This document shows, piece after piece, positions 5,210 to 57,493 of a stretch of 64,000 nucleotides of DNA (position 1 is its first letter; each line of letters begins with the position of its first letter). Source of the stretch: a virus; the IMG/VR virus record IMGVR_UViG_3300047551_000431, positions 1 through 64,000 of that record; one strand, 5' to 3'. Under the pieces are notes generated by a model. That model had not been told where the DNA came from and did not search any database. It was given only the letters and a program-made list of their open reading frames with translations. Position numbers and translations under genes: made by a program.

Positions 5210-5643
5210 TATGGATTAATAACTAAAAAGTGAAAAGTAAGATTTATAGGTGATGGTGTAGGGGATGAAGGTCTAGCGAAAGTTATACCAAAGGATCCGT
5301 CCGTTATACTATAAGTTGATGCACCAAATGGTTGAGTAGGTTGAGCAAAAGCATTATCTACTTCAAATGTTAGCAAAATAATACTAGATGCTGTTACTTT
5401 ATTATTGTTAACAGTAAAGTTACCTTGCCCACCGCCTGCAGGAGCGGCTAATGCGATCGATCCAGCATCAGCATCAACTGTTACAGAGCTGAAAATACTA
5501 ACGGTTCCTGTATCAACTGTAAATTTAGAACCAGAATTTGATAATGCATCATACAACGCATTAACGTGTCCTATACGTGCTACTTGAGCATCAGAACTTT
5601 TCTTAAAGTACTTTTTGTAGTTAAAAATATCGATGAATGACAT
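5209..5643 (-). CDS. Small structural protein, paralogue A
   Basis: The product has 144 residues. The first ~35 (FIDIFNYKKYFKKSSDAQVA, then RIGHVNALYDAL) are nearly identical to the N-terminus of the upstream neighbour at 5661-6143. The rest differs and is rich in beta-prone Ser/Thr/Val/Gly and Pro (about 40-144), as in phage fibre or decoration domains. A conserved N-terminal docking segment with a variable beta-rich C-terminal domain suggests that both attach to the same virion site. No enzymatic motif is visible. It lies between the giant internal protein genes and the lysis genes. Confidence 0.6.
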   Translation of the reverse strand: MSFIDIFNYKKYFKKSSDAQVARIGHVNALYDALSNSGSKFTVDTGTVSIFSSVTVDADAGSIALAAPAGGGQGNFTVNNNKVTASSIILLTFEVDNAFAQPTQPFGASTYSITDGSFGITFARPSSPTPSPINLTFHFLVINP

Positions 5644-5660
5644 AATTATTTATTTTTTGA

Positions 5661-6143
5661 TTAATTATATACTCTAATTTCTATTGCAGTTTTTAGTAAT
5701 AAACTATCATTAAATGGTAATATACGAGGAGGTGTAGGAGCTGCGTCGGTGTTATTATCAAAAGTAATTAATGCAGTACCTCCTCCAACAACAGGAATAT
5801 ATTCTGGAATTTGAGTACCACCAAAGCTTATTATAGATCCTGTACTTGATGTTGCTAAGAAAAGAGTTTTTGTCATGTCCCAAGCACCTGCGCTATTTAT
5901 AACATAATAGGTTCCTATACTATTTCTTTTGAAAATAACATCTGAACCAAGTGTATTATGTAGCACAGTAGCTACTGGATCATCAGTTCCACTTTGTGTT
6001 AGCAAAGCAGTATATACTTTATAAGGTAAAGAACCTTGGGATAAGGCATCATATAGTGCATTAACATGTCCGTATCTAGCAACTTGAGAATCGCTAGATT
6101 TAGAAAAATACTTCTTGAAATTAAAGATATCTATAAACGCCAT
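5661..6143 (-). CDS. Small structural protein, paralogue B
   Basis: The product has 160 residues. It shares the N-terminal FIDIFNFKKYFSKSSDSQVA...GHVNALYDAL segment with the downstream gene, then diverges into a beta-rich C-terminal part. A tandem duplication followed by divergence of the distal domain is the simplest reading. Upstream lies a 46-base AT-rich gap with a TATATTATATATG-like stretch (minus strand), which may hold a promoter that separates this gene from the 2103-residue gene. Exact virion location is unknown. Confidence 0.6.
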   Translation of the reverse strand: MAFIDIFNFKKYFSKSSDSQVARYGHVNALYDALSQGSLPYKVYTALLTQSGTDDPVATVLHNTLGSDVIFKRNSIGTYYVINSAGAWDMTKTLFLATSSTGSIISFGGTQIPEYIPVVGGGTALITFDNNTDAAPTPPRILPFNDSLLLKTAIEIRVYN

Positions 6144-6189: not shown

Positions 6190-9100
6190 TTATTTGAAAC
6201 GACTTTGTGCACTTTCAAAGTTTTTCAATGCATTAACTGGATCTACAGCTTTTCCAGAAAGTCCTATAGATTTAAGTATGTAGTTAAGAACCTTTGCGTC
6301 TTCTTGCTGTTGCCACTCAAATGGTCCCGCATCACGCTTGTAATAAGCTGAAGGATCGTTAGTTATCAAGTTTACAATAGCAGCAATACTCTTTGAGGTG
6401 TTCTCTACAGTATGTGTTAGTGCAATAGAATCTAAAGTAAACAACTTACCATAGTCATCAAGTCCTAATCCGGGTATTGGTACCATAGCTTCCTGCTCGT
6501 TTAGTGTACTCTTAAGTAAGAACAACGCATGGTTTTCCATAAATCCTACGGTGTTATATTCATACTCACTGTCTGCAGTAAAGATTCCGGGAAGTGGTCC
6601 TGACTTACGGCGTAGTTTTTCGTAGCGCTCTTCATCATCTGGATCATAATCAAACAATAATAACATCAAGTTAAGACCTCCGATAATCACTAACAATTCA
6701 ACAGCAGTCTTCTTAAGTGATGCTTTCTCTTGTTTAGTAAGAACCTTTGTGTCTTTTCCTAAAGTCGTAATTGCTCTTACCATAGTATTCAAAGACTGAG
6801 TATAGTAACCTATTCTCATCTGATTACCTTGAACATCCCATCTAGCTTGTGGGTTCAAGAAGTTTCCACGGTATCCAAAACGGTTCAAGAACATGTTAGC
6901 AAACCACTTCTTCAAGAATGTGATCATTCTCCATAGTAAGTATCTACCGCCCATAGGAGTATCAAATTGTGTAAAAGCTCCATTAAGATTTCTATTCATA
7001 GCTTGTACACGGTTCTGCATCATCTTGAACTTAGATCCTCCTGGTGCCCACTCTTGACTAATTCCTTCTTTTACAGTAAGTTGACCATCTTTAATCTCAA
7101 ATGCTTCCATGTAAGGGATTTGTTTTGTCACACCGTTGATAGTTTGATCTACCATTTGGTGGTGCATTACTCCTCCAAACAATTGCATTGTTGCGTTAAG
7201 CTGCGTCCATACACGGAAGTTAGTTAACCAGCTTCTGTCTTTTAATATGTCTCTTGTAAGTGTTCTAGTTGAACTAGTACCAAACTTATCCCCATAACCA
7301 CGGACTTCAGGTCTAAACTTCATTTCAGGATCGAACATTTCATAAATCTGAACATTCAATCCTTTTGGACCATACTTATAGATCTCAAAAGATATCTCTG
7401 CTGTAGCGTACTGTGCCCATATTGCACCTTTTGCTAAACTACTTGGTGATAAATACTGTCCTCCAGCACTCTCAATAATTGACTGGAATGTCTGACCAAA
7501 CGAGTTCTTTAACGCTGATGTAATATCTAATGCAAAGAACGCTGTCGATGCAAGACCCATTGCAAAACTACCGAACTTGTTTAGTCCCGCCATGTCTGCA
7601 GTAACACCTGCTTGTGTCTTACCCTCAAACTCTCTTTCTATAAGTGAGTTGATTGCTTGTGCTCTTACAGATGTTCCTTTCTTTTTAGTAGCAAAGCGTA
7701 GTTGATTAAACGCAAGTTTATCACTCTTACTCGCTTTAGTCATATCTTTAAGAGCACCTTCTTTTCCGTTGACAACCTTTTGAATTGCACGTACTTGAGG
7801 ATTGATCTCTACTAACTTCTTATGTCTCTCCGCACTCTGCATATAGCGCATTACACCAAGGAACATGTCTTCGGAAGTTTCTGTTAATTCTAAGTCTGCT
7901 TTACCTGCAATAGGAATACCGCTGATCTCAGAGTCAAACATGTCTAGAGTTACATAGTTTATGTCAGCTTCTGGATTATAACCTAGATCTAAATCATCTT
8001 TCGCTTTTGCAAACGTTGCTTTTGTATTACTTACAACTGTATCCCACTTGTCTTTGAGTGTGCCTTCTGTAAGAGTTTCGTAACCATCCTTTCTAAATCT
8101 AGGTGCAAATACACCAAGTCTTGAGTTCTTAGATAGTCCTTCTTGGTTCTCCAAATGGAACTGAAGCATCTTGTTAGCAAGGTTGAACTGTGCAGGATTA
8201 GTATTCTTTAATCTGTAATACTCATCATTTCTAAACTTGCTATCAGGTTTTGGTAACCATCTACCAACCTCATCTACAGTAGCTAATGTGAGATCACCTC
8301 GACGAAGTGCTTCCGCCATAGTAATCTTTTCTGTTCTGTATTCACTCTTTAAAGATCTTCTGTAATACTTCAAAGTAGGAATACCTTGTATAACATCAAT
8401 TACATTTCCGTCTTTATCTGTGATTTCTGTACTCTCGTAGTACTCAGGATCATTTGGACGGTTGACGTTCCAAGCGCTTATACGTTTATGACTTTTGATT
8501 TTAGTTCCTCTTCTTCTACCTTTCTTAATAGTATATTCAGAAGTATAATGATTTTCTCTGAACCATTTATCAAACTTAGGACTCTTTCTTAGAATATCGC
8601 TAATATTAGGATCAAGAATCTTATCAATGTTACTTGCATCAAACTCTCTAATACCTAATACGCTGAATAATTCTGCAACATCTACATTGTCCTCTTCCTC
8701 CTCACCTGGTTTTAGTAATTCATTTACAGCATCTATATACTGACTGGTAGCTTCTTTACTTCTAAGAGCATTAAGTTTTTTATAGAGAATATTTATTCGA
8801 CCTATAGATACGTCATTTAATGCGTATTCATCAATTAGGCTTTGAAGATACTCGTATCTATCTCTAAGATCGGGATTTTCTGCTACCCATTCTGAAAGAT
8901 TATCTCGATTGAGTGATAACAAAGCAGATATGTAATCGTACTCTTCTTGCTCATCTGCAGATAATCCCATCAAACCTGTGATGGTCTTTCTAGACTTTTC
9001 AATCTGTTTGTCTAGTTCTTTGATAGCTGCTCTTTTCTTTTCAGACATTAGCAAACCATCAGGTTGACCATCATCATCTCTAAACGCACTCATCTGATCA

Positions 9101-12100: not shown

Positions 12101-12501
12101 TCATCTTTAGTTACATCTACGTAATACAAAATAGGATTCTCTCTTTCTTTTAAGTAAAAACTCAGGTCTTCTATATTATCTGTAAACCAAATTCCGGTAT
12201 CATCTTTTTCAGAACCTACTCTCCATAATCTTGTTTTACTTTGTTCAGGTTTACCAATTAAAATTTCATATACAGCATTAGCTAATTCAGAATTAGAATC
12301 AAATAGTTCTGGTATTCCTGGTTTAATTGCTGCAGGTTTTACATCTAATAACTTACCTTCTTTTCGTAAAGTCTCTTTTATCTCTTCAACAGATCTAACT
12401 CTACCATATTCTAGATAGTCTTTATTAGCTATGAACTCTCCAAATACTTTTACTGATTCATTTAGTGCATCCTTTTCAGGACCAAACGCGCATGCATTCA
12501 T
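6190..12501 (-). CDS. Giant virion protein with ART-like and zincin-like modules
   Basis: The product has 2103 residues. Residues ~90-135 (RLWRVG...GIWFTDN...ILYYVDV) and ~190-250 (IVYRGSEKG...RGFFTEKISYAKEYA) each show the R-x-G plus G-x-(W/F)FT pattern of ADP-ribosyltransferase-like folds; a catalytic Glu cannot be assigned. HEFAH at 413-417, preceded by VYLIRED and followed by EEVVVRAL, fits an HExxH metallopeptidase of the kind found in polyvalent phage proteins. Residues ~540-1500 are mostly charged helices. Residues ~1638-1667 and ~1930-1950 are hydrophobic and could insert into membrane. The only cysteine found is C4. The start is four bases after the stop of the polymerase gene, so it is expressed with it. 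Ejection with the polymerase is inferred from synteny and family knowledge. No overall family function is known to me. Confidence 0.7.
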   Translation of the reverse strand: MNACAFGPEKDALNESVKVFGEFIANKDYLEYGRVRSVEEIKETLRKEGKLLDVKPAAIKPGIPELFDSNSELANAVYEILIGKPEQSKTRLWRVGSEKDDTGIWFTDNIEDLSFYLKERENPILYYVDVTKDELTKAKAEGPGIGNNEFQFISEKGNKLSEGRIKQITPEQKQQAQQLYSAYLDIIFPQNTIVYRGSEKGRSQFKTRGFFTEKISYAKEYAFDKGFVAQSGEGMINTFLINTASIKNVGEMNTESLENEPQDFVLKGVDKGRAAESGTVYATTSKNLYELGTKQDIEGFKKFTEQGVSYVRVSQTVDEHLRDLAVFPGFDAMLTGIEVDTQGVSVNRANAIVDFMVRSFSDRLGIPYEFVSRGEAFEILKQAGKTYTQESGFFIGGKVYLIREDLSLDTAMHEFAHPFVRAIQRENPELFNKLYNDLINTETGRKMVSMVSLLEDTLDPSSDLFKEEVVVRALSKHAYDKINKKPEDTSFFNAIKNFLYNLKQLLRKYLGKTYDVSKLDSTTTLDELSEIFLAAKIDFQTESVNQTDIVAFKKDIDGLVEELANIMETDSGAQAVSKAINDVYRVAMNHKERLEVNKNLKDMAELLKGEFDEPTYKIIINNLRDYESLITDKFSELVEKYQYNHDKAKAYIETLYQIKHMARLMVIHMNEIRNQPQTPEITKQFFYYRQLATDWANTISNAREMLNEEGLDTGEFVDLITSIEGYVNTAINIDEKFSVRSATELLTDVLDPLAKEVERYYNDIIDELVSKGASPEKIERYKREFKDTILDKQALKEWLTGQRKDTNVLSAWMESYMNIQDPVVFGLAQFINNNISDVLTVSQQKHNKFATEFEPLLQAAGIDIKNLKALRDAVTYVEKDGIYNEKGEYVQRDRYAFKNHLKDYRYEIGKINDEIRKAEITAQETGDSTELDKLKVEREKFLSENFYDSKKEVVRNAEKRLVRDEIGEKAYNARDLVLRKIKSLDLGITDPDELIEKDRVAILDSLWREYNMLFSLSYADGTKKDPNSDDYKIAVRLREYREETKEFYEWVPVKNMFSRALASYEQQLKDNGITGGEFIKMRADWIKNNTRVKIKPEFWEKVNEILEEIRSLKPEIPENLKMKLDLDELYADLTDQMSAFRDDDGQPDGLLMSEKKRAAIKELDKQIEKSRKTITGLMGLSADEQEEYDYISALLSLNRDNLSEWVAENPDLRDRYEYLQSLIDEYALNDVSIGRINILYKKLNALRSKEATSQYIDAVNELLKPGEEEEDNVDVAELFSVLGIREFDASNIDKILDPNISDILRKSPKFDKWFRENHYTSEYTIKKGRRRGTKIKSHKRISAWNVNRPNDPEYYESTEITDKDGNVIDVIQGIPTLKYYRRSLKSEYRTEKITMAEALRRGDLTLATVDEVGRWLPKPDSKFRNDEYYRLKNTNPAQFNLANKMLQFHLENQEGLSKNSRLGVFAPRFRKDGYETLTEGTLKDKWDTVVSNTKATFAKAKDDLDLGYNPEADINYVTLDMFDSEISGIPIAGKADLELTETSEDMFLGVMRYMQSAERHKKLVEINPQVRAIQKVVNGKEGALKDMTKASKSDKLAFNQLRFATKKKGTSVRAQAINSLIEREFEGKTQAGVTADMAGLNKFGSFAMGLASTAFFALDITSALKNSFGQTFQSIIESAGGQYLSPSSLAKGAIWAQYATAEISFEIYKYGPKGLNVQIYEMFDPEMKFRPEVRGYGDKFGTSSTRTLTRDILKDRSWLTNFRVWTQLNATMQLFGGVMHHQMVDQTINGVTKQIPYMEAFEIKDGQLTVKEGISQEWAPGGSKFKMMQNRVQAMNRNLNGAFTQFDTPMGGRYLLWRMITFLKKWFANMFLNRFGYRGNFLNPQARWDVQGNQMRIGYYTQSLNTMVRAITTLGKDTKVLTKQEKASLKKTAVELLVIIGGLNLMLLLFDYDPDDEERYEKLRRKSGPLPGIFTADSEYEYNTVGFMENHALFLLKSTLNEQEAMVPIPGLGLDDYGKLFTLDSIALTHTVENTSKSIAAIVNLITNDPSAYYKRDAGPFEWQQQEDAKVLNYILKSIGLSGKAVDPVNALKNFESAQSRFK

Positions 12502-12505
12502 TCTA

Positions 12506-15500
12506 TTAACCTTTACAATTTTTAATATATTCTAATACTGTGTTGTCCGAAACTCGTTGTTTTACACCAGATTCCATCAAGGTCTGCTGTATATAATCTA
12601 GTCCGGTTGTCGCTCCCTCTAAAAGTTCTGTTGAGAAACCTTTACTTATAAGATCGAACATTGGATTAATATAACCAAACTCTTTTAATAGTCTCTTAGA
12701 CAAATGTACGTACAAATTCACGCTCTTCTTAAGTTGATTATTGGGAGCATACTTACCATTTTGTAGACTAAATCCTATAAGTTCTAGACCCATTCCTCGT
12801 GAAGGGAACACAATAGTTTTACCAGAATTCTTTAGTCTAGCTAGCTCATCTATCTGTTGATCAAGAACTTCTTTGTACTTCTCAAATTCTTCAGCACTAG
12901 GATTCTGACCACTAGGTAATTGTAATTGGATTCCGTAACTTCTACCTTTATCCAAACCTTTTCTAAACGCTTTTCTAGATCCGTTTGTAGGGGTCTTGTT
13001 CACTTTGGTACCGATAGGATACTGATCATCAAATACAAATACACTATCAGGATTCTCTTCAGAAACAGCATCGAATTCATTGGTTGTGAACTTCATAACT
13101 TCTTCATTGTATACACGAACAGATTCTATTTCACCTGTCTCCATATTTACAAATGCTGCATTTTGCTCTTGAAGTATGTCAGTGTTAATGGTTTCTTTAT
13201 TGAATGCACTTACTGCTGCATCTGCAACATAAGAAACATACATATTTCTGTCTCCGTTAAACTTAACGTCAAATCTTCTAGCAAATCTGTTCAGGATACT
13301 ATCTGTCTGCTCCTTATTAGTATTGAATACTTTTATGTACTGGTCTAAGTTCTGAACAATAAACGGTGCAATGTTATCCATTGTAAACACACTCATTACA
13401 TAAAGTCCGGATCTAGCGTTGTTACCACCCTGTATAAATCCAATAGTTGGAAGCCTTTCAAAGAACGCACTGATTACAGTATTGAGTTCTTTATCTTTTA
13501 CTTTACTTACACCTGGGTCAGCAAGTTGTAGCATTTGATCTTTATAAGATGTACGTAACTGACCATCCTTTTCTTGAGTAATTAATCTTAGGAATGTTTT
13601 GTTACCAACAATCTTACGTGCAAGTAACTCAAGCACTGGATAGTTAGAAACTAATCCTGGATTTTCAATTAAGAAGTGTTCTAACTTTCTATGAGTACCT
13701 ACAAGGTTTTGCTTATTATCACCTGCAAAAATACTAGTATCAATATACAAGTTATCCAAAGCTTTATTACGTAAGAATTCTTCATATCTCATTGGCATAT
13801 TTTTATTATCACCAATGATTTTCAAAAACTCTATGAACTCTTTAGACTGAACTGTCTCACTGTAGGGGTACATTCCTCGTAAGGTCTCTCTTTCAAGAAC
13901 AAACTTATAGTATAATTCAAATCCTCTATCACCGTAAGAAGAAAACGTGTTCTCTGGCAGTGGTGCTAGCACAGCATTCTTAGGATTGTATGGTGATCTT
14001 GCTGATAGAACTTCAAGTTTCTTTGTAGACTTATATTCTAATCCACTAAATAATCTTAAGTCATACTGCTCCTTTAAAGATTTCTTATCTACGAGTAGTG
14101 TAGGTTTACCGTCAGCATCAACATTTAAAAATGCTCCAAATTTAAGTACTTCCTGATTCTCAATATCAACTTCTACATCATTAGTTCTATATGTATCATC
14201 GTTGGTATTGTGTCTATACAGGAAGTTCTCAAAGATGTATTGATTCAAATCTGAAGTAAATGCGCTCACATACTTTTCTTCCATATCCATATCCATATCA
14301 AGCTTATCTAAATGTTCTAATAAGAATTCATTCAGATATACAGATGACCTTAATGGAAGAACAGCAGACAAAGATTGACGGATAAGATCTTGCTTCATGA
14401 ATGAACCTAAGATTGTAGACTTCAATAGTTTGTCAACCATCTCTTTAGGAACCTTAGCGGATATACCACGACTACCTTGTTGTTTAGCTACAGCATCGAA
14501 GTAAGTTCTCGCTTTATCAGTATCAAAATTCAAACTTCTCTTTACTTCTGAGTTAGCTTTACTCATCAATTGTATTTCTACAAAGTGCTCAAAGATCAAA
14601 TCATTAATATCAATCTTACCTTCCAAGTTAGCATATAAATCCTCTACAGGAATACTAAAATCACTAGGTATCTCACCACGCTTCTTTTGAATAGCAGCAA
14701 CAATTAGCTCTACAGATGGTTTACGTTTTCCAGTTCTTGCAAGAATGTCAGGTGATACCATATCTAACAAAGCATTATACTTTGCAAAGCTTGGTTTAAT
14801 ATATTCACCTCCAGTTAAACCAGCATACGGACTTCCATATTGTCTTACCTTTTCTAGATACTCTCTAATCTTAGGTTGGGATAAAAACAACACAATCTGT
14901 CTAATCGGTACCCCTGCTAGAATCATTACCTCAAACTCTGGTTCAAATTCTTTAATAGCATTAATGTCATAAACCCAGTCGTCTTTTGCAACGTCAAGGT
15001 ATCCATTCATCAACTCTGATATTACGTCTGCAGTGTAGCGTTTTTTATCTGCACTCATCTGGTGAGACAAAGAAATGCTATCTCCGATTTTATTATGATC
15101 TAAGAAAAGTCTTTGATAAACTTTACCGAGTTTAGTATCGTACTCATTTGCTAAGTACATACCTACAGATCTATATAAGTTAGAGAAGGTATTACCTGTA
15201 GCGATCATACCGATACCATCTTTACCAGCAGATAATGAAATCGCTTTAGAGATGTTGTAACCGTTCTCCATAATACGAGTTGGAGAAAACTTACGAGAAC
15301 TATGTCTACTTGTTTTGAAAGACTTACGGTTGTATTTACCAAACTCATTTTTTATAGATGGTGTTCCGTCTTCTTCTTCTCCTGTAAAGATTGTTGTATC
15401 GTTAGGTCGAGTCAGGTTGATATAGTTATCAGGTCTGCTTACAATACTAACCATGTTTTGCAACAATAAATTAGTTTCAGCATTAGTACTATACGACTGT

Positions 15501-18500
15501 ATCTGTCTATTTATATTTCTAATCTCTTCAAGATTATCAGCAATCTCTTTATCACGAGCTTCATAAAGTTCTTTTATTTCTTTTCGTGCTGCAAATTCTG
15601 CATCAAGTTTGCTTTGTATAGATTCAATCTTCTCAATTATAGCATCTAATTCAGCTTGTTTCTTTTCAATATATTTCTTACTATCCTTGATACTCTTACC
15701 TGCAGCAAGTCTCTCTTCTTGATCAGCTTTTGCTTTTCTAATTTTCTTGTAGATGACTGATCTCTCTTCTACTAGTGGTTCCTTTTCTGCAATTAATGCG
15801 TCGATATCCTCACTAGCAACTATTTTAGAAAGTTGTTCATCGTATTTTCTATCAATAGCATCATACTTCTCCCTAAGAGTTTCTTTTTCATTCTCAAGTA
15901 TAGCTTCTGACTTCTTTGTCTTAACTGACTTGGTAAGCTCTACCTTCTTTTCATTATAACTTATACTAGGTACAAGCGTAACAAGCTTGTCGATATCAAA
16001 GTCACCACCTGATTTAGCTACTATTTCTAATGGTAAGATCATTATGTTACCCGCATCTTCTGGTAAGAACTCATATACTTCCATAAAGTCCATAGAGTTA
16101 GTACCCTGTGTCGGAATACGAACACCGAATAGAGTAATCATTTTTCTATTATCTCCAGTGTTTAACCACTTGTCATTCTTAATCATTTCGTTTAAGCGAT
16201 CAAGTGTTCCTATCTTTTTACCATCATTATGATCTACATTCAATAACTTCTTAAAGTCACCATGTAAAGCAATCTTGATCTTCATTCCTGAGATAGGACT
16301 CTTTCCGTTCCATTTATAGAATGGTAAACCATCAGTACCATACTTTTTAAGATCTGCTTCTGTGGGTTTAGAAAACTTCTCAAATCCTACACCGGATCCT
16401 TGAATATATTGCTCACCTTTACTCATCTGGTCAATAATTCTCTTATTAACCAATGCGGTAATCAATGATTCAATCTTAGCAGGATCTGTAGAAATATCTA
16501 AAGGAAATAATAATTTACCGTTAGCATCTATTTTAATGAAGTCAATTGACTGCTCGTCTAGATCTTGTGCTGTAAGACTCTCTTTTACATATTCAACAAG
16601 ACGCTTATGATTAATTTTACCATTGTGGAAACCTAACTCTTTCTTAAGTTGGTTCTCTGCAATAGTTGTAATCTTATTGATATGATTTACATATGTCTTT
16701 TCTAGTTCGTAGTAAACAGACTCTTTCTCTTTTTGTTTTTCAGATAAGTCTGCCCATTGTTTTATTCTTTCAGACTCTGTAAGTCTTGGTCTGAAATCAG
16801 TTGGTACACCAAAGTCTCTAAGTCCTGATGTAACTAGCTTTCTTAACTGTGTAGGGAACTTTACATTCTTCTTAAACTTATCTTTAGTAACAAGCTGTTC
16901 TTTTAAGTAATCCAAGAAGATTGTATTCTCAACAAACTTGTAATCTGGTTCAGTAAATGCTGGATCAAATTGATCATTCTTATAGAACGGAATCAAATCA
17001 CCATTAGTACCTATACTAGCAATCTTAGAACCAGAATGCATTACACCGTAAGCAAAACCTTGAGATACCAAATGATTATGTAACTTCTCAAGTCTCTTAC
17101 CTTTAATTACATTAGGTATAAGCGGCATTACCGAATACTTGTGGAAAGCATTAGGTGCAAAGTTATCTGTTAACAGTGGACCAGAGTACTGTAATTTCTT
17201 TACGGGGAAGAACTGTAGTGTCTCTGCAAGATCTACATTCTCACCATTTATAATTCTATTGTATAGATCTTCTTTTTCTGGACTCCAGTTATCAAGTCTG
17301 ATCTCCAATGCTCTATATGCATCAAATGTCATCCATGCTTGAGCATCTGCTACTTTCATATTCTTGTAAGCATCGAATGCTTCTTTAGGAATAGGTACAG
17401 CAGCAGTTTCATTGTAGTCTTCTAACACACTAATCATTTCATCATAGTACACAGAGTCTGTAAATACATCTTTGAATACTGCTGTTTTTAGTATAGAACC
17501 TTGATACTCTAATGGATTAGATGGTGCTTGAAGACCTGATTGTTGGAACCAAGGTGACGTATGGTAACGACCTCCTCTATGTACAAACATATTATCCATA
17601 AATACATCTGCAACAGGAATTCTACCTGTAGCAAAGAATCCAGGAATACGTTTCATATGTTCTTCCTTATCATGGTTGTTCATAGCAGGGTCACCGTATA
17701 CAAGAATGTTCATCTCAAACTTGTGGATGAAGCTATTATATACCATAGACTTAACCGCTGTATCAAAGATTGTGGACGCTGCTTTACCTTTTAAGTTAGG
17801 TAACACGTTAGTAGTCATTGATGCATATACACCGGGTCTTTGTAATACAGGAAACGCGTTTAGTATATCCTTAGTCTTTGCAATCTCTTCTTCAAAATAG
17901 TTATTTAACTGCTCAAGAATTTGTTCTCTTACAGCAAAGTTGTTAGCTAAGAATTGTTTAAAAGAATCCAAGTCTGTAATAGACTCTTCATTGATTAACA
18001 TGTTAGCTGTTTCTTCTAGTAAGATGTCGTCAAATACTGTGAAGGTACTTCCTGTATCTTTAAATGTCACAGGGTTTCCTTTCTTATCATACCAAAGAAT
18101 AATATCTTCGGGATTAGTTCCAGTACCGCTGAAGCTTCTAACTTTTTTAATTCTTTCAAGTTCAGAACCTACATAGTCAATAATAATATTATTCGCTATG
18201 CTCCTACCGTTAGCATTTTCAAACTCTTTAGGATGTACGTAGAATGATGGGTTACCATTATTTGTAAGTGCTACGATAAAAGCTTGTGTCTTATCAGCGT
18301 GTTTATACGCCTCCGCAAATCCTTGCAGGTTATATGTGAAGAAGTCACGCAAATACGCCGTCTGGAAATCTGATGCAGATGATTTCAATCCTGATAACAA
18401 GATTACTGTTTCTACATTATCTTTAATTTGCTTGTCAAGAACTTGTGTTCCTAACTGAGATCTTATTTCAAGTTGATAAGGTACACCATTCTTTAATTGG

Positions 18501-23050: not shown

Positions 23051-23063
23051 TTCTTAAACTTTA

Positions 23064-26000
23064 TTATTTAGTAGGACAATAATTAAACAAATCATTCAAA
23101 CTATCGTCTGTAGATGTATTATTCATTGCAGTACGTTTTGCTTTCATTGCCTGAATTCTAGCTGCTGCATCATTAGTTAAATCTGACTGTGCAGCATCTG
23201 ACTTTTTAACAGTTTCGGTTTTAGGTTTTGGAGCTTTTTCTTCAATGGTCATTGGACGTAGATTTTGATTAATATCCTCTTCTGCTAAGGTACGAAACTT
23301 AGCATTGGTACGCAAATCTAAGTCAGCTACTGTATCAAGATTTTCAAACTTATCTGTAACATCGTGGAAACTTACAAAGGTAGTACCTTTATTATATGGT
23401 ATTAGTATAAGCTTAGTTCCATTATCATTAAATTCGTATATAACGGGTTCCTTGATACGTACAACTATATCCTTGATTTCTAATTGATTAGCTACTTCTT
23501 GTTTCTTAGTTGCTATAAGTGATTGTACTTCTTCATATGTAGTTCCAGCAAGTGCTAACTCTTTATCTAAAGTACCTAATGTTATTGCGTTATTGAGTTC
23601 TGCTCTGATTAAAGTCAATTGACTCTTATTTGTAACAGCACCTATTCTTGCTCTGATATCACCAAGTCCGGTTTGTTGAGCAGTTCCTTTTAAGATATCT
23701 ACTCCATAGATAGCAGATATAGTTAACCTCTTGTCAGCAGGAACTGCTTTTTCAGCTTTATTGATATTATCTGTTCCAGCATCTCTCTTTATATCTGATA
23801 AAGGATTTACTATAATAACATCAAACATATTATAAAAAGGTAATGCTCCTGTATTATCAAATACTACAGTAGTTCCAGTTGCTGCTTCTTCCTTAGCATT
23901 TTTTAATGCTTGTTGATATAAATATGTACGGGCATTGTTAGCACCAAGGTTAGTTGCAGCTAAAGGATTTAAGTAATACAATACATCTTTAAGATTTATG
24001 ATATTTGCAGATAGTGCTCTTATCAAACCTTCAGCAAGATCATTATCGCTTTTGGTGGTTGCTGACTTTCTAGCATCCTTAGCAATTTCCATTAACCTAT
24101 TAAATATTCTAGGTTCATTAAGAATATCCTCTATAAACTCATTACCTTTTTTGACACCATCGCCCAATTCACCAAAGTCCTCTTTAATACTACTATCTGT
24201 AGTAATGTATATGACTTTACCTTTAAACTGAGGTGCTACATTATTTACTCTCTCTGCAGGTTTTGGACGAGGTTCTCTTTTAACAAACTGAATCTTATCT
24301 ACAGGATCTCTTACTTCATATGTATTCCTATCTATATAGTAGATGTCTTGGGTTTGTCCTAACCCTTCATACATCGTCATAAAATCATCAAAGTCTACAC
24401 CAGTAATATCAAAGAAGTTCTCTTTAGCTGTTTCTATATTACCTTCAGCTGATAGTTCTTTCTTTAAATCATCAAGTGTTTTTTGACTAACCCCCCTAGG
24501 ATTACGTTTCATTAAATCTATGATCATTTCACGTAATTCATCTTCATCAGTTGTTTCATGAATTACACCTGATCCTGTAACGTCTTCTCCTCCTTTTAAC
24601 ACCATGATAAACTGATCCCATCCCATAGCGGTTTTATCGTCAGTGAACCACGCTTTTTCACTAACATCTGTTGCCCAGGTTAAATCTTTAGATCTTCTAA
24701 ACTTAGTACCTCTTAGATTTTGTAACATTACGTACTCTATATTAGAAGGATCTTCCCCTATCAAATAACTATGTTTTTCTATAGAGTCAGCTGCTTTATA
24801 GTATTGATCAAATATTTCTTTTCTTTCTGCGTCATTTAATATTTGATTCCACCATACTTTAAACCAACCTTTATTATTTCTAAATAGATTCTTAGCAAGT
24901 TGTTTAGACTTTTTAAAACTATACTCGTATTCTTGTTTCTTATTAAAGAATCTCCACATCAACTTTTCTCTATCCCATAAAGCAATGCTAGCACCTTTAT
25001 TTTCACCAATTGCCATTACACCAGCTTGCTTCTTTAGATACTCATAGCTGTCTTTATTTACTCTTTCTTCTTTTTTAAACTCATTCCAATTATCTTTTGA
25101 TGTCTTCTGGAAACCTTTAAATTCTAAATAATCAGAAACCATCTTATCCATACCAGCAGCATTGCCAACATTGAAAGTAGTTACTCCTTGGTTGATAGCT
25201 TTATCTATAAGTGGTTTATAGAATAACTGGAAGTGTCTGTTAATATCTTCATCATTAATCTTTCCGCCGGTTTGTTTAGGATTCCATGTACCACTACCAC
25301 TAATCATTACAGCAGTTATTCCTGTAAAGTCACTAGGGTTAGCTGCAGTACCCCAACCTCTTTGATATGCTTCTGTTGCAGATACATACGTATCTTTTGT
25401 TTCAGGTGCTTTGGAACCAATAAACGCATCAGACACACGCATCATCTCAATATCCTTACGGATATTCTTCGCTTTAGATGGTGCTGTTTTAATTAACTCT
25501 TCTGCAGCTTGTATCGCACTTTCTCTTGGAGTAGGTTCAGTTTGAGTATCATCTTTTCCTGTTTGTTTAGGTTCTTTTTCTGGTTGTTTACCTTCTAAAG
25601 CAGCTAGTTCTGCTTCATATTTAGCATTAATATCCCCTACAACTTTACCATTAACAGGAGTAGTAATCGTACCCTCAAGTCTTGCTTTTATATAAGCTCT
25701 TTGACCTCCTATACTTGTATAAACACTTCTTACAAAACCTTGACTTGTTAAATATCTAATTACTTTATCAGCATCTTTTTCTCCATTTTCTATAAATGCT
25801 TGAATAAGTTCTTCAGCAGTATTTTTTTCTTCCTCTGTTAATTCTTTATTATTTCCATCTGCAATATATTTCATCATAGTAGCAGAACCTACAGGGATAG
25901 CTTTTAACTCTTCTTGTTTCCTTCTTTCTATATCAGCTATAATAACATCCATTACAGGTTTACCTTCAGGATTAGCAACAGGAGTCATTGTACCATCAGG

Positions 26001-29000
26001 ATTATTATAGAATATTAATCCATTATCTACACTGTAGTTTGAAGTACCAACTTGCCCTTCTATATCAGAAACAGGAGTTTTTGGTGTTTTTGTTTTTTCT
26101 AAAGGTTCTGTATTTTCAGAATCAACTCTTTCTGCAATTTTATCAGAAAGTATTTGACTATAGGACATATTCTTACCATTGATGACTTCATCTTTACCGT
26201 AAGATGATTCTAGTATTTTATCACCATAGAACTCTTTAGCTACCTGTAAAGCTAGTTTAGCATCATTTTCTGAATAACCATGCATTACTACTTGGTCACT
26301 TAAAGCAGGACCTTGTACTTCTAAATCCTGAAATATTTTAACATCACCATTATAACCTCTTTTTTGAAGCTCTATCATAAAGTCTCTAAACATTTCTGGA
26401 GAAAAATCATTAAGATTTTTTAGTGAGAAATAACTTTTATGTGTAAAGGATTCATTGGTATTAGTTCCATTATTTATACCAAAGTATAACCATGAGTTAG
26501 AATCTTTAGTTCCCGAGTACAGTCTTACATTTTGAGCTAAGTACCTCTCTGCTTGAGGTTTATTCACAATAGCCATCATTGCTCTATAAAAAGAATCAAA
26601 TGCTTTTTTAGATTCCTCAGTTAAAGAATCTCTATCTGCTTTTTTAATATCTATTATCTCTTGTGCAGTTGTAGCGTTTCGGTGTTTTGGATTTGTTCTA
26701 AGTTGTGAATCATCTATTTTTAGATAATTCTTAATAGCATAGTTAGCATATTCTTCTCTTGATAGTTTAGATAAATCAACACCTTCTGTTTTAGCAATTT
26801 TTGCTAATTCATATGAAGCATCCCATCCTGAAAGTTTTTTTCTTCTTTCTATTTCTTCTTTACTAGTAGTACCAGACGTTGGTGGTTTTGTAGCACCAGG
26901 TTTAACAATAGGATTAGCAGGATAGTCAAATACAGTTTGTCTTAAACTAGATATCTTATATGTACTATCAGGAGTGGTGATATCCATAACATAACCAGTT
27001 CTAGACTTACCTTTCTCAGTTCTTCCTGGTACCATAATACTTCTATTATATTTTATAGAAGATCCTGCCTCTTTCAACGTCAGTATTGGGAAAATATAAA
27101 GTTTATCAGCCACAATACCCGTTGATTGTCTCAATAGTTCACGGTATGCAGCTAACTGTGCTTGATCCGATTCCTTATATAAATACAAGTAACCCTTCTG
27201 TGCGCTTTCTTTTAACTCAGGATATTTGTTTCCAAACTTTGCAAAAGCAAGAGTCATCTTATTCTGCATCTCCGGAGTCAGTTTGTTTCTTATAAGTAAA
27301 CTATTTTCATTATCTTTAAGAATAGATTTAAACTCAGCATAGTCTTCACCCATTGCTTCTTCAAACGCTTCCTCTAATGCATACTGCTCATTTCTTTCTA
27401 GAGTAGAAGTCTTTAAGTCGATAATAAATATCTCACCTTTGTTATTATATCCTAGTAAGTCAATAGAACCAGCAGCATCTTTACCGTCTAGTTTACCGTA
27501 GAGCGTAGGTATGTCAGAAATAATTTTAATTCCATTTCTATCTAACGCACGTTTTACAGTTCTTAGATTATCAAATAACTCATTAAGGAAGTTTGCTGTA
27601 AAGATTGGTAATTCACTTGCGTCTTTGTCTGTAAATCCAGGTTTAGACGATATTTTATTTCTAGATGCAGTGTATGCATCTTTAAAGTCACCTATATTCT
27701 GAATACGATTATTTAAGAAATCTCTGGTAAGATCATCTATAATAGTTCCTCTAAATGATGAAGTCTTTGACTTAGCTTCAAATGGATCTTTTACAATAGT
27801 GGTAACACGTTCGAATAATGTACCATCTTCATCTACATAGTTCTTATCATCTTCTGTTAATGATAATTTCTTAGCAGCTAGTTTTTGACGTGCTTCACGA
27901 AGTGCATCACTGATAGCTTCCATACCTTCTTCATTTAGTACAGATGCTTTTGGTGACACAACTTTATTATTGATAATATCAAGTAACTCCTGTGTTGGAG
28001 TACCGTCAAGAATCATTGCGTTTATTTCCTGAATTGTATATCCTAATGCTGTTGCAAGTTGGGGAATATTATCCATTGTGATAACAGTACCTGCAGTACC
28101 TTCACCCTCTTTCTCTTTTGCTTTCTTCTTTGTTTTGAAGTTTGATATAATACGACGAGCTTCAAGATCATTAAGATACCATTCATCTAAAGTCATTCCT
28201 TTAGCAATCTCCGGATCTGTCTCTGCAACTTTTGTTTTCTTACTTTCAAAAGCTGCTTTTAATTCTTCTTGTAGTTTAGGATCTAATTTAGAAAATTCTT
28301 CAGCAGCAGATGCTGGTTGTTTTTCTTTTTCAGTAGATTTAGGACCCTCTGACAACTTATTAGCAAGAACATTTAATGCTTGTTTATATACAGAGCGTTC
28401 TTCGTTAGTGATGTTAAGTAGCTTCTTAATAAAATCAGTAAGAGTCTTAAAGAATGCGCCAAACATAGTCTGTGCTTCCTTTGTCATATCGACTTGCTCA
28501 CCAGTGTACTCATACTGTGCAGCTAGATTAGCAAAGAAAGGATTGGTTAACATCTCTGATAAGAAAGATGTATTATTAGTGAACGCATAAGCATATGATG
28601 CTTTTTGCTGATCGCTTAATTCTTTAAGTAAAGACTCTCTAATATCTTTAATCTTATCTGTAAACTCTTTGTCAGAACTATTCTCTATAACAATCTTCTG
28701 CATCAAAGCGCTTAAGATAGAATACTCTATGGATACTTTATCCATTCCTAATACCTTGTAGTCTTCGGAACTATATCGAGCATCTACCATTACACCATTT
28801 CTCTGATCGTATGTAGAGTTTGTATAGTGGTTTCTTACAAATGTAATTTTCTCATTACCATCAAGAAGACCTTTTAGTAGTCTAGCAAGTTCTTTTTGTT
28901 GTACGGTACCAGGACCATTTATAACAGCAGTTAATACAGATCCGATAGTTACTTCACTCATAGGTGCGGATCTATCAAATCCGAATTGTTTTGCCATATC

Positions 29001-32000
29001 AACAAAATTCCTTTTATCAGAATCTTCTTTAGCAGCTACAGTTTGTGTAGCATATGCTTTTAATTCTTCAGCATAGAAAAGATCAGTTCCTTCTCTATAG
29101 AGTTTCTCACCGGCATCTTCTACTACAGGTTTAAATAATCTCTTACCTGTAAGTTCAAAGTAACTGTCATCTGTAGCATCAATGAATTCTAGAATCTTTT
29201 GGTATCTAGAATCATTCGAAGGAATCAATTGACCGCTGTCTGCATCAATAAATTTCTCTGGAATAATATTGTTTGCTAAATATGCTTCCGCCTCATCCTC
29301 AGATATATATGCATTGAACTGACTAAGCAATCCGTTTAAGAATGCATCAGTAGCATGACGTCTTCTATATTCGTCAACTTCTTCTTTTGCTCTTTTAGCA
29401 CTTACTTGAGACGCTACTTCTAAAGCACCGTTGATACGTCTAGCTACGTTACTAAAGTACTCAGGATTATTTAACGCATTTACAGCTTCTGCGAACTGAG
29501 TCTTATCTCTATTAAGTCTCCAGTAATCTCTAAAGTCATCAAATGCTTTATCAATATCTTTATCTAAGATTGTCGTACCATTATTCTTTGCAAGCAATTT
29601 GATGTAATCACCAAATGCTGTTCTTAATAACTTTTCAGATTCTTCTGTAGATGTTGCTAATTCCTCTGCGTTTTCTTCAGTAGCTGTTTGAAGAGTATCC
29701 AAGTTAGAAGCATAGTCCTGAATAAGTGTAGACAAACTCTTTAACTTATCATACTTATCTTGTAGTTTAACTGCTTCTGCTTTTTGCTCATCGGTACCAG
29801 CATTCATGTTATCAATCTCTTGCTTGAGAATCGCTAACATGTTGTTAGTACCACCAATACCTCCAGCGGCACCAGCGAGTAGTTTAGGATTGATACTAAA
29901 CATTGTAGCAATGTCTGCATAATCAACACCTGCTAATGACGTATTTGTTTTAAGTTTCTCTAAGATACTTGTCATACGTTCTCCAGTTCTTTGATAACTG
30001 AAGTCGTTAAATACTGCAAGCTTTCTTGCAGACTCAAACGCAAAGTATCCAATAGGATCTTGTCTAAAATCAAAAGGATTAGTAAGACCTTGATATTTGT
30101 TGTATGTATCTTTTACTTGATTAATTCTCCCTACAACAGCATCAATTCTTTCTAATGTTGTTTTCTTATCGTATGTGTTGTTACCGGGGTTCTCATAAAG
30201 TGATGCAGCAAGTTCTTTCTCATCTAACTGCTTTAATCCGTTTAAGTGATCAATAAACAAATCTAAATGTCCGGACTCCATAAGAGTCATAATGTGTTGA
30301 GCAAAAGAATCATCTTTAGCATCAACAGCACCTTTAACATCACCTTCAACCACTGCAGCTTCAAACAAATCAGCAAAGTCTTTTTGTGCTTTTACGTTAG
30401 CATCAACATTTGAAAAGTATGACTTAGTATCTTTTGTTAGAGTATTTAGAGCATTTACAACTTTGTCATTGTATGCTTTTTGATCCTTTAAGTACTTCTC
30501 ATACGGACTTACTTTACCTGCGTTTGCGGGATCTGCTTTAAATGCTTTATCTTTTATTTTTAGTTGTGCAAGTTGTCCGAGATTATACGCACCATGCACA
30601 GATGACTGTACTGCTTGTATTGGTCCCGCCATCAAGAAACCTGATAAGAATACTTCTAAACCTTCACCAGACATCTGTGACTTAACACCTGTCTTTAGAG
30701 AGGATAGTATTTGTGCTTTACCTACTTTACTAGGGTTAAGATATGTCTGAGTGTAATAGTCAGTAACTCCTTTTGCAGTACCTTCTTGATACATCTCTTG
30801 AACACCTTCCATCATATTAGCAGACAAGAATCGCAATCCATTCTTAGGTGCATTCTTTAGTATCTGTTGTCTGTAATATTTATTACCGAGCGCTTTTACA
30901 CCAGAACCAAATCCTGAGATAACTTCCCAAGGATTCTTTCCTGAAGTTTTCCAATCAGCATTCTGAATAAGTTTACCGTTTTTAATACCCTTACCGGCAA
31001 GATGTTCAACTTCATCCATAAAGGGTAAACCCTTAAGTGCTCTTTCTAAAACAACTTTATTGGATAAGTATATACCACCGGTATTTAAAAATCCTGCAGT
31101 GTATCCTGCAGTACGTGCTTGCTGATAAATACTTTGTGCTTCTTGATCGTTAGGATCACGACCATTCTTTTTCTTAAACTCATCAATAAGATTGTTTGCT
31201 ACCTCATTCTGTACAAACCCTCCTTCGAGTTTTGCTTCAGCTGTAACAAGATTAATCTCACGTAAGTCTCTATAGAATGCACCAAATGTTTTATATCCAG
31301 CAGCTAAGTCAGATAGTTTATCTATGTTAGCAGCTGCTCTTCCAGAATCTCTAAATAGTTCCGCAGTATTTTGGAAAGGTAACCAGCTCTTAGCAAAGTT
31401 ACCTAATGTCTTAGATGCATCATATGCTTGTTTAGCGTTCTGAATATTATTTGCAGCGCGAAACGTATCAAACAATCTATCAAATGCTAAACCTCCTCTA
31501 AGTAAATTCTGTCCTGTTCTTGCAGCAGCTAAACCTTGCATACCGGGTATGCGAGATGCTAACATCAATGCCGCTTCTTCAGCATATATTTCACTTATAA
31601 CACCAAGTGTGTATGGTACATTAGATAGAAAGTTTACAGTTTTAGCACCAAGTGTATCTCTAGATGATGATGCAATACTCATTGCTTTCTCCATCTCCTC
31701 AGCACTTTCAGTATCAGGTTTCATGCTGAACATGTTGCTCCAGTTACCAAATGTAGATGTAATACCTAAACCAAACATTTTAGGCATCTGTTTAACAGCG
31801 CGACCTAAATCATCCCATGTACTACTATGTTGATTATAGAAAGATTCATTATCACGTAATGGAGTAAAACCTAATTGTTTAAACTTAGGATGAGAATAAT
31901 ACCTATCATAGTTAAAACCTTTCTGACCAGCGTTAAATGTAGTAGGTTTATCAAATCTAAACGCATCTGGTCTAGATGCGTTCATGAAGTTCTTATCTAG

Positions 32001-32153
32001 CATCGACTGCGCTTTTTTCTTAGCGTCTGTCGACGTAGTTGGATTTGGTAACGGATCTACACCTTGTATTGCATTCCCTACTGAGTATTTATATAAATCT
32101 GCTGTTGAAGGTTTCCCATTAGGTGTTGGGGTAATGTTTACTCTATTCTCCAT
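23064..32153 (-). CDS. Giant virion protein with PD-(D/E)XK nuclease and SLOG-like modules
   Basis: The product has 3029 residues. Residues ~1550-1680 carry a RecB/Cas4-type PD-(D/E)XK core: D1565 (GSIDLLG), D1579-x-K1581 (IIDLKTS) and a QLAAY helix (1666-1670). Around 2290-2345, VMISGSGTW...NVGNAAGMDKMVSDYL fits the nucleotide-binding SLOG/DprA-like Rossmann pattern. The N-terminal ~500 residues contain Gly/Ala-rich, partly hydrophobic helices. The middle is long charged helices, with a Pro/Lys linker near 1750 and low-complexity acidic/Lys stretches. Only one cysteine is found, C3026. It is placed just before the polymerase gene (13-base gap) and is presumably co-packaged. The start overlaps the end of the 1063-residue gene by 11 bases. 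The nuclease could act on host or phage DNA during entry, which is inference. Confidence 0.7.
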   Translation of the reverse strand: MENRVNITPTPNGKPSTADLYKYSVGNAIQGVDPLPNPTTSTDAKKKAQSMLDKNFMNASRPDAFRFDKPTTFNAGQKGFNYDRYYSHPKFKQLGFTPLRDNESFYNQHSSTWDDLGRAVKQMPKMFGLGITSTFGNWSNMFSMKPDTESAEEMEKAMSIASSSRDTLGAKTVNFLSNVPYTLGVISEIYAEEAALMLASRIPGMQGLAAARTGQNLLRGGLAFDRLFDTFRAANNIQNAKQAYDASKTLGNFAKSWLPFQNTAELFRDSGRAAANIDKLSDLAAGYKTFGAFYRDLREINLVTAEAKLEGGFVQNEVANNLIDEFKKKNGRDPNDQEAQSIYQQARTAGYTAGFLNTGGIYLSNKVVLERALKGLPFMDEVEHLAGKGIKNGKLIQNADWKTSGKNPWEVISGFGSGVKALGNKYYRQQILKNAPKNGLRFLSANMMEGVQEMYQEGTAKGVTDYYTQTYLNPSKVGKAQILSSLKTGVKSQMSGEGLEVFLSGFLMAGPIQAVQSSVHGAYNLGQLAQLKIKDKAFKADPANAGKVSPYEKYLKDQKAYNDKVVNALNTLTKDTKSYFSNVDANVKAQKDFADLFEAAVVEGDVKGAVDAKDDSFAQHIMTLMESGHLDLFIDHLNGLKQLDEKELAASLYENPGNNTYDKKTTLERIDAVVGRINQVKDTYNKYQGLTNPFDFRQDPIGYFAFESARKLAVFNDFSYQRTGERMTSILEKLKTNTSLAGVDYADIATMFSINPKLLAGAAGGIGGTNNMLAILKQEIDNMNAGTDEQKAEAVKLQDKYDKLKSLSTLIQDYASNLDTLQTATEENAEELATSTEESEKLLRTAFGDYIKLLAKNNGTTILDKDIDKAFDDFRDYWRLNRDKTQFAEAVNALNNPEYFSNVARRINGALEVASQVSAKRAKEEVDEYRRRHATDAFLNGLLSQFNAYISEDEAEAYLANNIIPEKFIDADSGQLIPSNDSRYQKILEFIDATDDSYFELTGKRLFKPVVEDAGEKLYREGTDLFYAEELKAYATQTVAAKEDSDKRNFVDMAKQFGFDRSAPMSEVTIGSVLTAVINGPGTVQQKELARLLKGLLDGNEKITFVRNHYTNSTYDQRNGVMVDARYSSEDYKVLGMDKVSIEYSILSALMQKIVIENSSDKEFTDKIKDIRESLLKELSDQQKASYAYAFTNNTSFLSEMLTNPFFANLAAQYEYTGEQVDMTKEAQTMFGAFFKTLTDFIKKLLNITNEERSVYKQALNVLANKLSEGPKSTEKEKQPASAAEEFSKLDPKLQEELKAAFESKKTKVAETDPEIAKGMTLDEWYLNDLEARRIISNFKTKKKAKEKEGEGTAGTVITMDNIPQLATALGYTIQEINAMILDGTPTQELLDIINNKVVSPKASVLNEEGMEAISDALREARQKLAAKKLSLTEDDKNYVDEDGTLFERVTTIVKDPFEAKSKTSSFRGTIIDDLTRDFLNNRIQNIGDFKDAYTASRNKISSKPGFTDKDASELPIFTANFLNELFDNLRTVKRALDRNGIKIISDIPTLYGKLDGKDAAGSIDLLGYNNKGEIFIIDLKTSTLERNEQYALEEAFEEAMGEDYAEFKSILKDNENSLLIRNKLTPEMQNKMTLAFAKFGNKYPELKESAQKGYLYLYKESDQAQLAAYRELLRQSTGIVADKLYIFPILTLKEAGSSIKYNRSIMVPGRTEKGKSRTGYVMDITTPDSTYKISSLRQTVFDYPANPIVKPGATKPPTSGTTSKEEIERRKKLSGWDASYELAKIAKTEGVDLSKLSREEYANYAIKNYLKIDDSQLRTNPKHRNATTAQEIIDIKKADRDSLTEESKKAFDSFYRAMMAIVNKPQAERYLAQNVRLYSGTKDSNSWLYFGINNGTNTNESFTHKSYFSLKNLNDFSPEMFRDFMIELQKRGYNGDVKIFQDLEVQGPALSDQVVMHGYSENDAKLALQVAKEFYGDKILESSYGKDEVINGKNMSYSQILSDKIAERVDSENTEPLEKTKTPKTPVSDIEGQVGTSNYSVDNGLIFYNNPDGTMTPVANPEGKPVMDVIIADIERRKQEELKAIPVGSATMMKYIADGNNKELTEEEKNTAEELIQAFIENGEKDADKVIRYLTSQGFVRSVYTSIGGQRAYIKARLEGTITTPVNGKVVGDINAKYEAELAALEGKQPEKEPKQTGKDDTQTEPTPRESAIQAAEELIKTAPSKAKNIRKDIEMMRVSDAFIGSKAPETKDTYVSATEAYQRGWGTAANPSDFTGITAVMISGSGTWNPKQTGGKINDEDINRHFQLFYKPLIDKAINQGVTTFNVGNAAGMDKMVSDYLEFKGFQKTSKDNWNEFKKEERVNKDSYEYLKKQAGVMAIGENKGASIALWDREKLMWRFFNKKQEYEYSFKKSKQLAKNLFRNNKGWFKVWWNQILNDAERKEIFDQYYKAADSIEKHSYLIGEDPSNIEYVMLQNLRGTKFRRSKDLTWATDVSEKAWFTDDKTAMGWDQFIMVLKGGEDVTGSGVIHETTDEDELREMIIDLMKRNPRGVSQKTLDDLKKELSAEGNIETAKENFFDITGVDFDDFMTMYEGLGQTQDIYYIDRNTYEVRDPVDKIQFVKREPRPKPAERVNNVAPQFKGKVIYITTDSSIKEDFGELGDGVKKGNEFIEDILNEPRIFNRLMEIAKDARKSATTKSDNDLAEGLIRALSANIINLKDVLYYLNPLAATNLGANNARTYLYQQALKNAKEEAATGTTVVFDNTGALPFYNMFDVIIVNPLSDIKRDAGTDNINKAEKAVPADKRLTISAIYGVDILKGTAQQTGLGDIRARIGAVTNKSQLTLIRAELNNAITLGTLDKELALAGTTYEEVQSLIATKKQEVANQLEIKDIVVRIKEPVIYEFNDNGTKLILIPYNKGTTFVSFHDVTDKFENLDTVADLDLRTNAKFRTLAEEDINQNLRPMTIEEKAPKPKTETVKKSDAAQSDLTNDAAARIQAMKAKRTAMNNTSTDDSLNDLFNYCPTK

Positions 32154-52244: not shown

Positions 52245-52245
52245 A

Positions 52246-53757: not shown

Positions 53758-53798
53758 CTTATATATAATTTACGTATTTTTTAGTCAGTTTCAAAATA

Positions 53799-54641: not shown

Positions 54642-54646
54642 TTATA

Positions 54647-57490: not shown

Positions 57491-57493
57491 ATC

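What the first reader, a model, noticed from the sequence alone, without database searches (positions are those of the whole stretch)
6190..32153. Four cysteines in ~8,650 residues, all at gene junctions of the three giant proteins
By eye I find only C3026 in the 3029-residue protein, C3 and C3512 in the 3514-residue polymerase and C4 in the 2103-residue protein. Each lies within four residues of a terminus, and they form two pairs exactly across the two gene borders (YCPTK | MIC and NCKG | MNAC). The first protein has none at its N-terminus and the last none at its C-terminus, as a three-link head-to-tail chain would need. One hypothesis is that terminal disulfides or thiols link the cargo proteins in order for serial ejection, and that internal cysteines are selected against because the chains pass the tail unfolded. 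An ancestral split of one giant chain is an alternative.
Basis: partly seen in the sequence, partly recalled or inferred. Interest (0 to 1): 0.85.

Follow-up and report, generated by a model that had tools for sequence, protein, structure and literature searches.

The report
Cysteine couplings joining phage cargo proteins
In crAss-like gut and environmental phages, the giant proteins injected into the host carry one cysteine on each side of every gene break and none where the genes are fused, which suggests that disulfide bonds hold the pieces together as one long thread for delivery.

Summary
About 199 would be expected at the rate of the other ORFs in the window.

The window belongs to a crAss-like phage. 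The three proteins match the virion cargo set gp47, gp50 (RNA polymerase, DFDID) and gp49 of phage crAss001. I surveyed 224 distinct relatives.

- Where the polymerase and third genes are separate, both cysteines are present in 161 of 163 cases. For the first and polymerase genes it is 79 of 82.
- Each inner end carries one cysteine. No true outer chain end has one.
- Where genes are fused, the pair is absent. Ten phages encode all three as one chain of 5,005-5,683 residues; eight of these contain no cysteine at all.
- Extra, lineage-specific breaks have acquired their own pairs.
- In crAss001 the first gene lies on the opposite strand, yet its terminal cysteine remains.
- Layout changed at least 14 and 9 times at the two borders, and supported independent pairs never contradict the rule.

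The best explanation is that terminal disulfides replace the peptide bond at gene breaks, making one covalent cargo thread. No bond has been seen directly. Internal cysteine loss is common but lineage-dependent.

The parts
23064..32153 (-). P1, first cargo protein, 3029 aa (position of crAss001 gp47 / phi14:2 gp78); only Cys is C3026
   Evidence: PHROG exonuclease-like hit
23076..23078 (-). Cys3026 codon (YCPTK end): C-terminal half of coupling 1
23042..23044 (-). Cys3 codon of the RNA polymerase (MIC start): N-terminal half of coupling 1
12506..23050 (-). Virion RNA polymerase, 3514 aa, DFDID at 16003-15989; only Cys are C3 and C3512
12515..12517 (-). Cys3512 codon (NCKG end): C-terminal half of coupling 2
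12490..12492 (-). Cys4 codon of the third protein (MNAC start): N-terminal half of coupling 2; the only invariant column in a 14-sequence, 300-aa N-terminal alignment
12361..12501 (-). N-terminal cap of the third protein: unstructured leader 1-7 with Cys4, then a predicted three-helix element (residues 8-47)
   Evidence: AlphaFold2 model, block pLDDT 85-91 for residues 11-50, rest of model poor
6190..12501 (-). Third cargo protein, 2103 aa (position of crAss001 gp49 / phi14:2 gp76); only Cys is C4
32143..44302 (-). Four further cargo/tail-side genes poor in Cys (1063, 855, 775, 1334 aa; 2, 0, 0 and 4 Cys); the 855- and 775-aa ones may be the C1/C2-type cargo, judged by position and size only; not part of the chain

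Best explanation
P1, RNA polymerase and the third protein form one linear cargo thread in the virion. At each gene border the single Cys at the C-terminus of the upstream protein forms a disulfide with the single Cys at the N-terminus of the downstream protein. The chain runs P1 -S-S- polymerase -S-S- third. The bond replaces the peptide bond that other crassviruses have at the same place, because some encode any two neighbours, or all three, as one polypeptide. Being one thread would keep the pieces 1:1:1 and in order during packaging and when they pass partly unfolded through the tail. The reducing host cytoplasm would then separate them. Shown: the four Cys, the order-wide border rule, its loss with fusion and its presence at extra breaks. 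Inferred: that the pairs are S-S bonds in virions, that the thread is ejected in series, and that it is uncoupled by reduction.
For: Rule at borders: third-protein N-terminus 163/163 with a Cys within 8 residues, exactly one each and none at residues 11-40; polymerase N-terminus 79/82; polymerase C-terminus 151/163 within 8 residues and 161/163 within 50; P1 C-terminus 74/82 within 8. Outer ends: 3/105 and 3/174 by automatic call, and all six turn out on reading to be inner ends. Fusion: Suoliviridae and others (P1+polymerase fused) keep only the second pair; Intestiviridae (polymerase+third fused) keep only the first. Ten fully fused chains have no terminal Cys and eight have no Cys at all. 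Extra breaks: L038 has four pieces and three pairs; L146, L247 and L252 have further lineage-specific breaks with pairs. Independence: at least 14 and 9 layout changes; in the 6 and 8 supported independent pairs the Cys goes with the break wherever it differs, never against. Not a DNA-level effect: crAss001 gp47 lies on the opposite strand and keeps C2339 of 2341; pairs persist across inserted genes (L107). Virion disulfides in other crAss001 proteins are known (PMC10172136). A ~50-residue N-terminal module starting with the Cys (CPNxNSxEF...) occurs on the third protein in 108/163 and on the polymerase in 7 lineages, never internally, and only in crass-like phages, where named, among 50,697 phage records.
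Against: No disulfide has been observed between these proteins. The published crAss001 virion gel was reducing (PMC6235969). No thioredoxin was found in 34 of these phage records, with the control working; the sulfhydryl-oxidase search was uninformative, so how the bond forms in a cytoplasm is open. Many hosts are strict anaerobes. Some lineages tolerate more than 20 internal Cys, which should risk mispairing. Two borders with an inserted element (L137, L282) lack the polymerase C-terminal Cys. Some ends carry 8-50 residues after the Cys.
Confidence: 0.72

Rival explanations
1. Non-covalent docking: the terminal segments form a docking interface between consecutive pieces, and the Cys is a conserved contact, metal ligand or catalytic-type residue there, not a disulfide. 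The chain exists but is held by fold.
For: A small N-terminal cap with predicted helices follows the Cys, and the CPN cap is conserved beyond the Cys. Assembly happens in a reducing cytoplasm, and no thioredoxin was found in 34 records.
Against: Cys is the only invariant column among 14 divergent third-protein N-termini. Upstream C-termini share little but the Cys. There is exactly one Cys per end, which does not by itself make a Zn or Fe-S site, and fused chains need none.
Confidence: 0.17
2. Relics and relaxed constraint: internal Cys are purged from ejected proteins, while terminal residues are free to vary, so leftover Cys survive only at ends, perhaps as scars of splitting an ancestral chain.
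For: Internal depletion is real, including the unrelated N4 gp50, gp51 and gp52 with no Cys. Splits and fusions are frequent.
Against: Relaxation would leave Cys at outer ends too (none of the outer ends after re-reading) and not exactly one per inner end in over 90% of cases at ~20% identity. In lineages rich in internal Cys the terminal one is still kept.
Confidence: 0.04
3. DNA- or RNA-level border signal: the TGT codons belong to a translation-coupling or regulatory sequence at gene junctions, not to a protein function.
For: The window's borders are short (4 and 13 nt) and TGT is used about ten times more often than TGC at these sites.
Against: Both codons occur. crAss001 gp47 is convergent with gp49, not next to gp50, and keeps the Cys. 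The pair persists across an insertion of about 6 kb (L107). Position varies within 1-8 residues of the end.
Confidence: 0.02
4. Each terminal thiol binds a different virion partner (portal, C1 cargo, capsid), so breaks create anchor points rather than couplings between cargo pieces.
For: Crassvirus virions do contain inter-protein disulfides elsewhere (PMC10172136), and some Intestiviridae C1-type proteins have a C-terminal Cys.
Against: It does not predict that Cys come and go in pairs on both sides of a break, that outer ends lack them, or that full fusion removes them all.
Confidence: 0.05

Closest known systems
Crassvirales virion RNA polymerase cargo (crAss001 gp47, gp50, gp49; phi14:2 gp78, gp77, gp76)
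   Same: Homologous polymerase core with DxDxD, same three-part set, found in virions by mass spectrometry in crAss001 (PMC10172136)
   Different: The window's proteins are longer (3029, 3514, 2103 aa); the terminal-Cys rule has not been described in the papers I could read
N4-type virion RNA polymerase (Schitoviridae gp50) and neighbouring virion proteins gp51, gp52
   Same: Giant polymerase ejected from the virion, no internal Cys
   Different: One chain, no terminal Cys, unrelated polymerase class (from general knowledge)
End-to-end disulfide multimers such as von Willebrand factor and gel-forming mucins (general knowledge)
   Same: Terminal Cys join long chains end to end
   Different: Those are secreted homopolymers made in an oxidising compartment; this would be an ordered heteropolymer carried in a virion
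Poxvirus cytoplasmic disulfide pathway for virion proteins (general knowledge)
   Same: Virion proteins oxidised although made in a reducing cytoplasm
   Different: No thioredoxin found here and the oxidase search was uninformative; not homologous

Membership tests
Crassvirales virion RNA polymerase cargo block | Large polymerase with conserved DxDxD (DFDID) and RIPT[QE]G motifs homologous to phi14:2 / crAss001 | tested here: met
   tblastn to phi14:2 at 6e-17 and 83 matching records in all, crass-like where named; motif at residues 2350-2354
Crassvirales virion RNA polymerase cargo block | Flanked by P1-type and third-type giant proteins, in any fusion layout | tested here: met
   Third-protein profile from the window hits 287 ORFs; P1 similarity from the window itself is weak (8 ORFs) but position and L002 agree
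Crassvirales virion RNA polymerase cargo block | Presence of the three proteins in virions | not testable with these tools
   Shown for crAss001 by others (PMC10172136); no virions of this phage
Crassvirales (order) | Major capsid, terminase and portal of crassvirus type | not tested
   A few PHROG structural hits only; placement rests on the polymerase and its tree
Disulfide-linked cargo chain (proposed) | One Cys on each side of each internal gene border | tested here: met
Disulfide-linked cargo chain (proposed) | No Cys at outer ends and none at borders that are fused away | tested here: met
   position of the fusion point could be mapped only roughly in partly fused chains
Disulfide-linked cargo chain (proposed) | S-S bond present in virions | not testable with these tools
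   needs non-reducing gel or mass spectrometry
N4-type virion RNA polymerase | Single chain without terminal Cys | tested here: not met

The most novel reading that the evidence does not exclude
Crassvirus virions carry their transcription machinery as one covalent thread of about 5,000-8,600 residues in which disulfides at gene breaks do the job of peptide bonds. The thread is packaged and ejected in order, then cut apart by the reducing host cytoplasm. Portable N-terminal caps carrying the Cys act as couplings that evolution can place wherever the gene is broken.
Probability: 0.55. Interest if true: 0.93.

Novelty: categorically new. Interest (0 to 1): 0.88.

Why it matters
How phages deliver megadalton protein cargo through a narrow tail, in order and in fixed ratio, is unsolved. 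Here the genomes themselves supply the experiment: gene break and cysteine pair come and go together across an order that includes the most abundant gut viruses. If the bond is real, it gives a new principle (disulfide in place of peptide bond for serial protein ejection), a simple test in the cultured phage crAss001, and a hint for engineered protein trains. It also reframes the odd variation in crassvirus polymerase gene layout, noted but not explained in earlier work that I could read, as breaks in one functional chain.

Tried and rejected
Megablast of the region against phage records: no match, so relatives were reached through protein profiles. A single-sequence viral-contig scan gave one relative; alignment queries gave ~300 loci. 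Mapping the exact fusion point in fused proteins with a profile of the polymerase N-terminus gave few usable hits (13 of 109) and one irrelevant hit for the third protein, so 'no relict Cys at the fusion point' rests on proteins with no other Cys at all (24 of 90 partly fused, 8 of 10 fully fused). Search for a phage oxidation system: thioredoxin absent in 34 records; Erv1/Alr search uninformative because the control did not ring. A second cap type ('YNG') was drawn too loosely after iteration to support claims about keyed couplings. AlphaFold2 of the polymerase C-terminal 300 aa was poor (pLDDT 47). The idea of a four-Cys metal site was dropped because layouts with one border carry only two terminal Cys. 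The structure paper for the phi14:2 polymerase was not in the library, so I cannot exclude that it comments on the terminal Cys.

Full report
WHAT WAS CLAIMED AND WHAT IS THERE. The three minus-strand ORFs at 23064-32153 (P1, 3029 aa), 12506-23050 (RNA polymerase, 3514 aa) and 6190-12501 (third protein, 2103 aa) hold exactly four cysteines: P1 C3026, polymerase C3 and C3512, third C4. Other window ORFs run at 2.3% Cys, giving an expectation of 199 in 8,646 residues. Random placement of four Cys within 4 residues of the four inner ends has probability about 1e-11. The polymerase carries DFDID and matches the phi14:2, crAss001 and other crass-like polymerases. The window lies in a 91,480-base IMG/VR record. 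The nearest relative found, L002 (78% identical), repeats all four Cys with nothing internal in the stretch held.

NAMED RELATIVES. phi14:2, at ~24% identity, has gp78 C1797 of 1797, gp77 C3 and C2179 of 2180, gp76 C3. crAss001 has gp47 C2339 of 2341, gp50 C5 and C2404 of 2412 (plus one internal), gp49 C5 of 1349. In crAss001 gp47 lies on the opposite strand, convergent with gp49, so the pattern does not come from neighbouring DNA. Suoliviridae (cr1_1, cr4_1, cr118_1, cr50_1, cr52_1) fuse P1 to the polymerase and keep only the polymerase|third pair. Intestiviridae (jaberico, Carjivirus, cr8_1, cr110_1, crAss002) fuse polymerase to third and keep only the P1|polymerase pair, once two mis-called starts are corrected.

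SURVEY. Four profile scans of IMG/VR plus the named phages gave 320 loci and 224 polymerase cores under 90% identity. Start codons were chosen as the ATG nearest the upstream stop, without regard to Cys. Layouts: 46 split/split, 90 fused/split, 31 split/fused, 11 fused/fused by automatic call, the rest cut by contig ends. At inner ends a Cys lies within 8 residues in 163/163 third-protein N-termini, 79/82 polymerase N-termini, 151/163 polymerase C-termini and 74/82 P1 C-termini. Both partners are present at 161/163 polymerase|third borders (allowing 50 residues at the C-terminus) and 79/82 P1|polymerase borders. Each end has one Cys, with almost none in residues 11-40. Outer ends: 3/105 and 3/174.

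EXCEPTIONS READ ONE BY ONE. All six outer-end hits are inner ends that were mis-labelled. L038 has four pieces and three pairs. L146 splits the third protein and has a second pair there (QQNCK | MSSC). L252 splits P1 and has two pairs. L098, L036 and L274 are mis-typed borders. Missing inner Cys are two mis-called starts (L013, L018), an intron-split polymerase (L274), tails of 8-50 residues after the Cys (mainly TAG=Q gut phages on the polymerase side), and two borders with a recurrent insertion (L137, L282), which remain unexplained.

FULL FUSION. Ten phages encode P1, polymerase and third as a single ORF of 5,005-5,683 residues. None has a terminal Cys and eight have no Cys anywhere. Complete third proteins have exactly one Cys in 93 of 128 cases, and split polymerases exactly two in 35 of 45.

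INDEPENDENCE. On a FastTree phylogeny of the cores the P1|polymerase state changes at least 14 times and the polymerase|third state at least 9 times. Independent pairs on well-supported branches: 6 and 8, with the Cys following the break in every pair that differs and never opposing it. FastTree on 253 columns is rough, so the counts are approximate.

THE CAP. A ~50-residue N-terminal module beginning with the Cys (consensus M..CPNxNSxEFxxLVxAxGxxxAAYxLWDxNNGN) is on the third protein in 108/163 and on the polymerase in seven lineages, and never occurs inside an ORF. It has no Pfam match, and among 50,697 phage records only 31 match, all crass-like where named. In the window's own third protein the Cys sits in a short leader before a predicted three-helix element, the rest of that model being poor. 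C4 is the only invariant column among 14 divergent N-termini.

INTERPRETATION. A pair that exists only where a chain is broken, on both sides of the break, one residue each, and that is present at extra breaks too, is what a coupling would look like. Among thiol chemistries a single Cys per side points to a disulfide. That step is inference. Support: crAss001 virions contain other inter-protein disulfides, and mass spectrometry found gp47, gp50 and gp49 as cargo, with a proposal of ejection in a partly unfolded state (PMC10172136). Against: no thioredoxin found and the oxidase search uninformative, anaerobic hosts, and no non-reducing gel published that I could find (the 2018 gel was reducing).

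INTERNAL CYSTEINES. Depletion is common but not universal: Intestiviridae and Oafivirinae carry up to 27 internal Cys, while most fully fused chains and the unrelated N4 proteins gp50-gp52 carry none. So two things must be kept apart: a border rule that is nearly absolute, and a depletion that is lineage-dependent and probably tied to ejection or oxidation rather than to pairing.

LITERATURE. Full-text searches found no paper that describes terminal Cys or a linked cargo chain in crassviruses. Yutin et al. note the variable polymerase protein boundaries without an explanation (PMC7886860). The phi14:2 polymerase structure paper could not be read.

Noticed in passing
L137, L246, L247, L282: A recurrent insertion near the polymerase/third border: one ORF ending GGIKMSxKxGxFEAKxG or similar, then an ORF starting with IEVEGGEIAIxNxxGDIAIIPK. 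In L137 and L282 the polymerase C-terminal Cys is missing.
   Followed up: partly
window 51693-58212: Neighbouring structural genes are very rich in Cys (10/183, 24/503, 19/280, 32/947, 11/185), a sharp contrast with the Cys-poor cargo next to them.
   Followed up: no
window 20456-20470 and 11251-11265: HExxH zincin-like motifs in the polymerase chain (HEAWH, residue 861) and in the third protein (HEFAH, residue 413); the third protein also has a YRG...F stretch reminiscent of an ADP-ribosyltransferase. Proteases delivered with the chain might process it.
   Followed up: no
L322 (phage N4) gp50, gp51, gp52: The N4 virion polymerase (3500 aa) and two neighbouring virion proteins gp51 and gp52 have no cysteine at all, so Cys-free ejected cargo looks like a convergent trait.
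   Followed up: partly
window 5209-5643 and 5661-6143: Two adjacent ORFs with near-identical starts (MSFIDIFNYKKYF / MAFIDIFNFKKYF), both without Cys, just downstream of the chain; look like tandem duplicates.
   Followed up: no
L205, L209, L210, L223, L291, L308, L309: In the TAG=Q gut lineage the polymerase C-terminal Cys is followed by a tail of 9-49 residues, mostly acidic.
   Followed up: partly
L010, L011, L013 (C1-type cargo): In some Intestiviridae the C1-type cargo protein also has a Cys near its C-terminus (e.g. Carjivirus gp47 C856 of 857), which might tie it to something.
   Followed up: no
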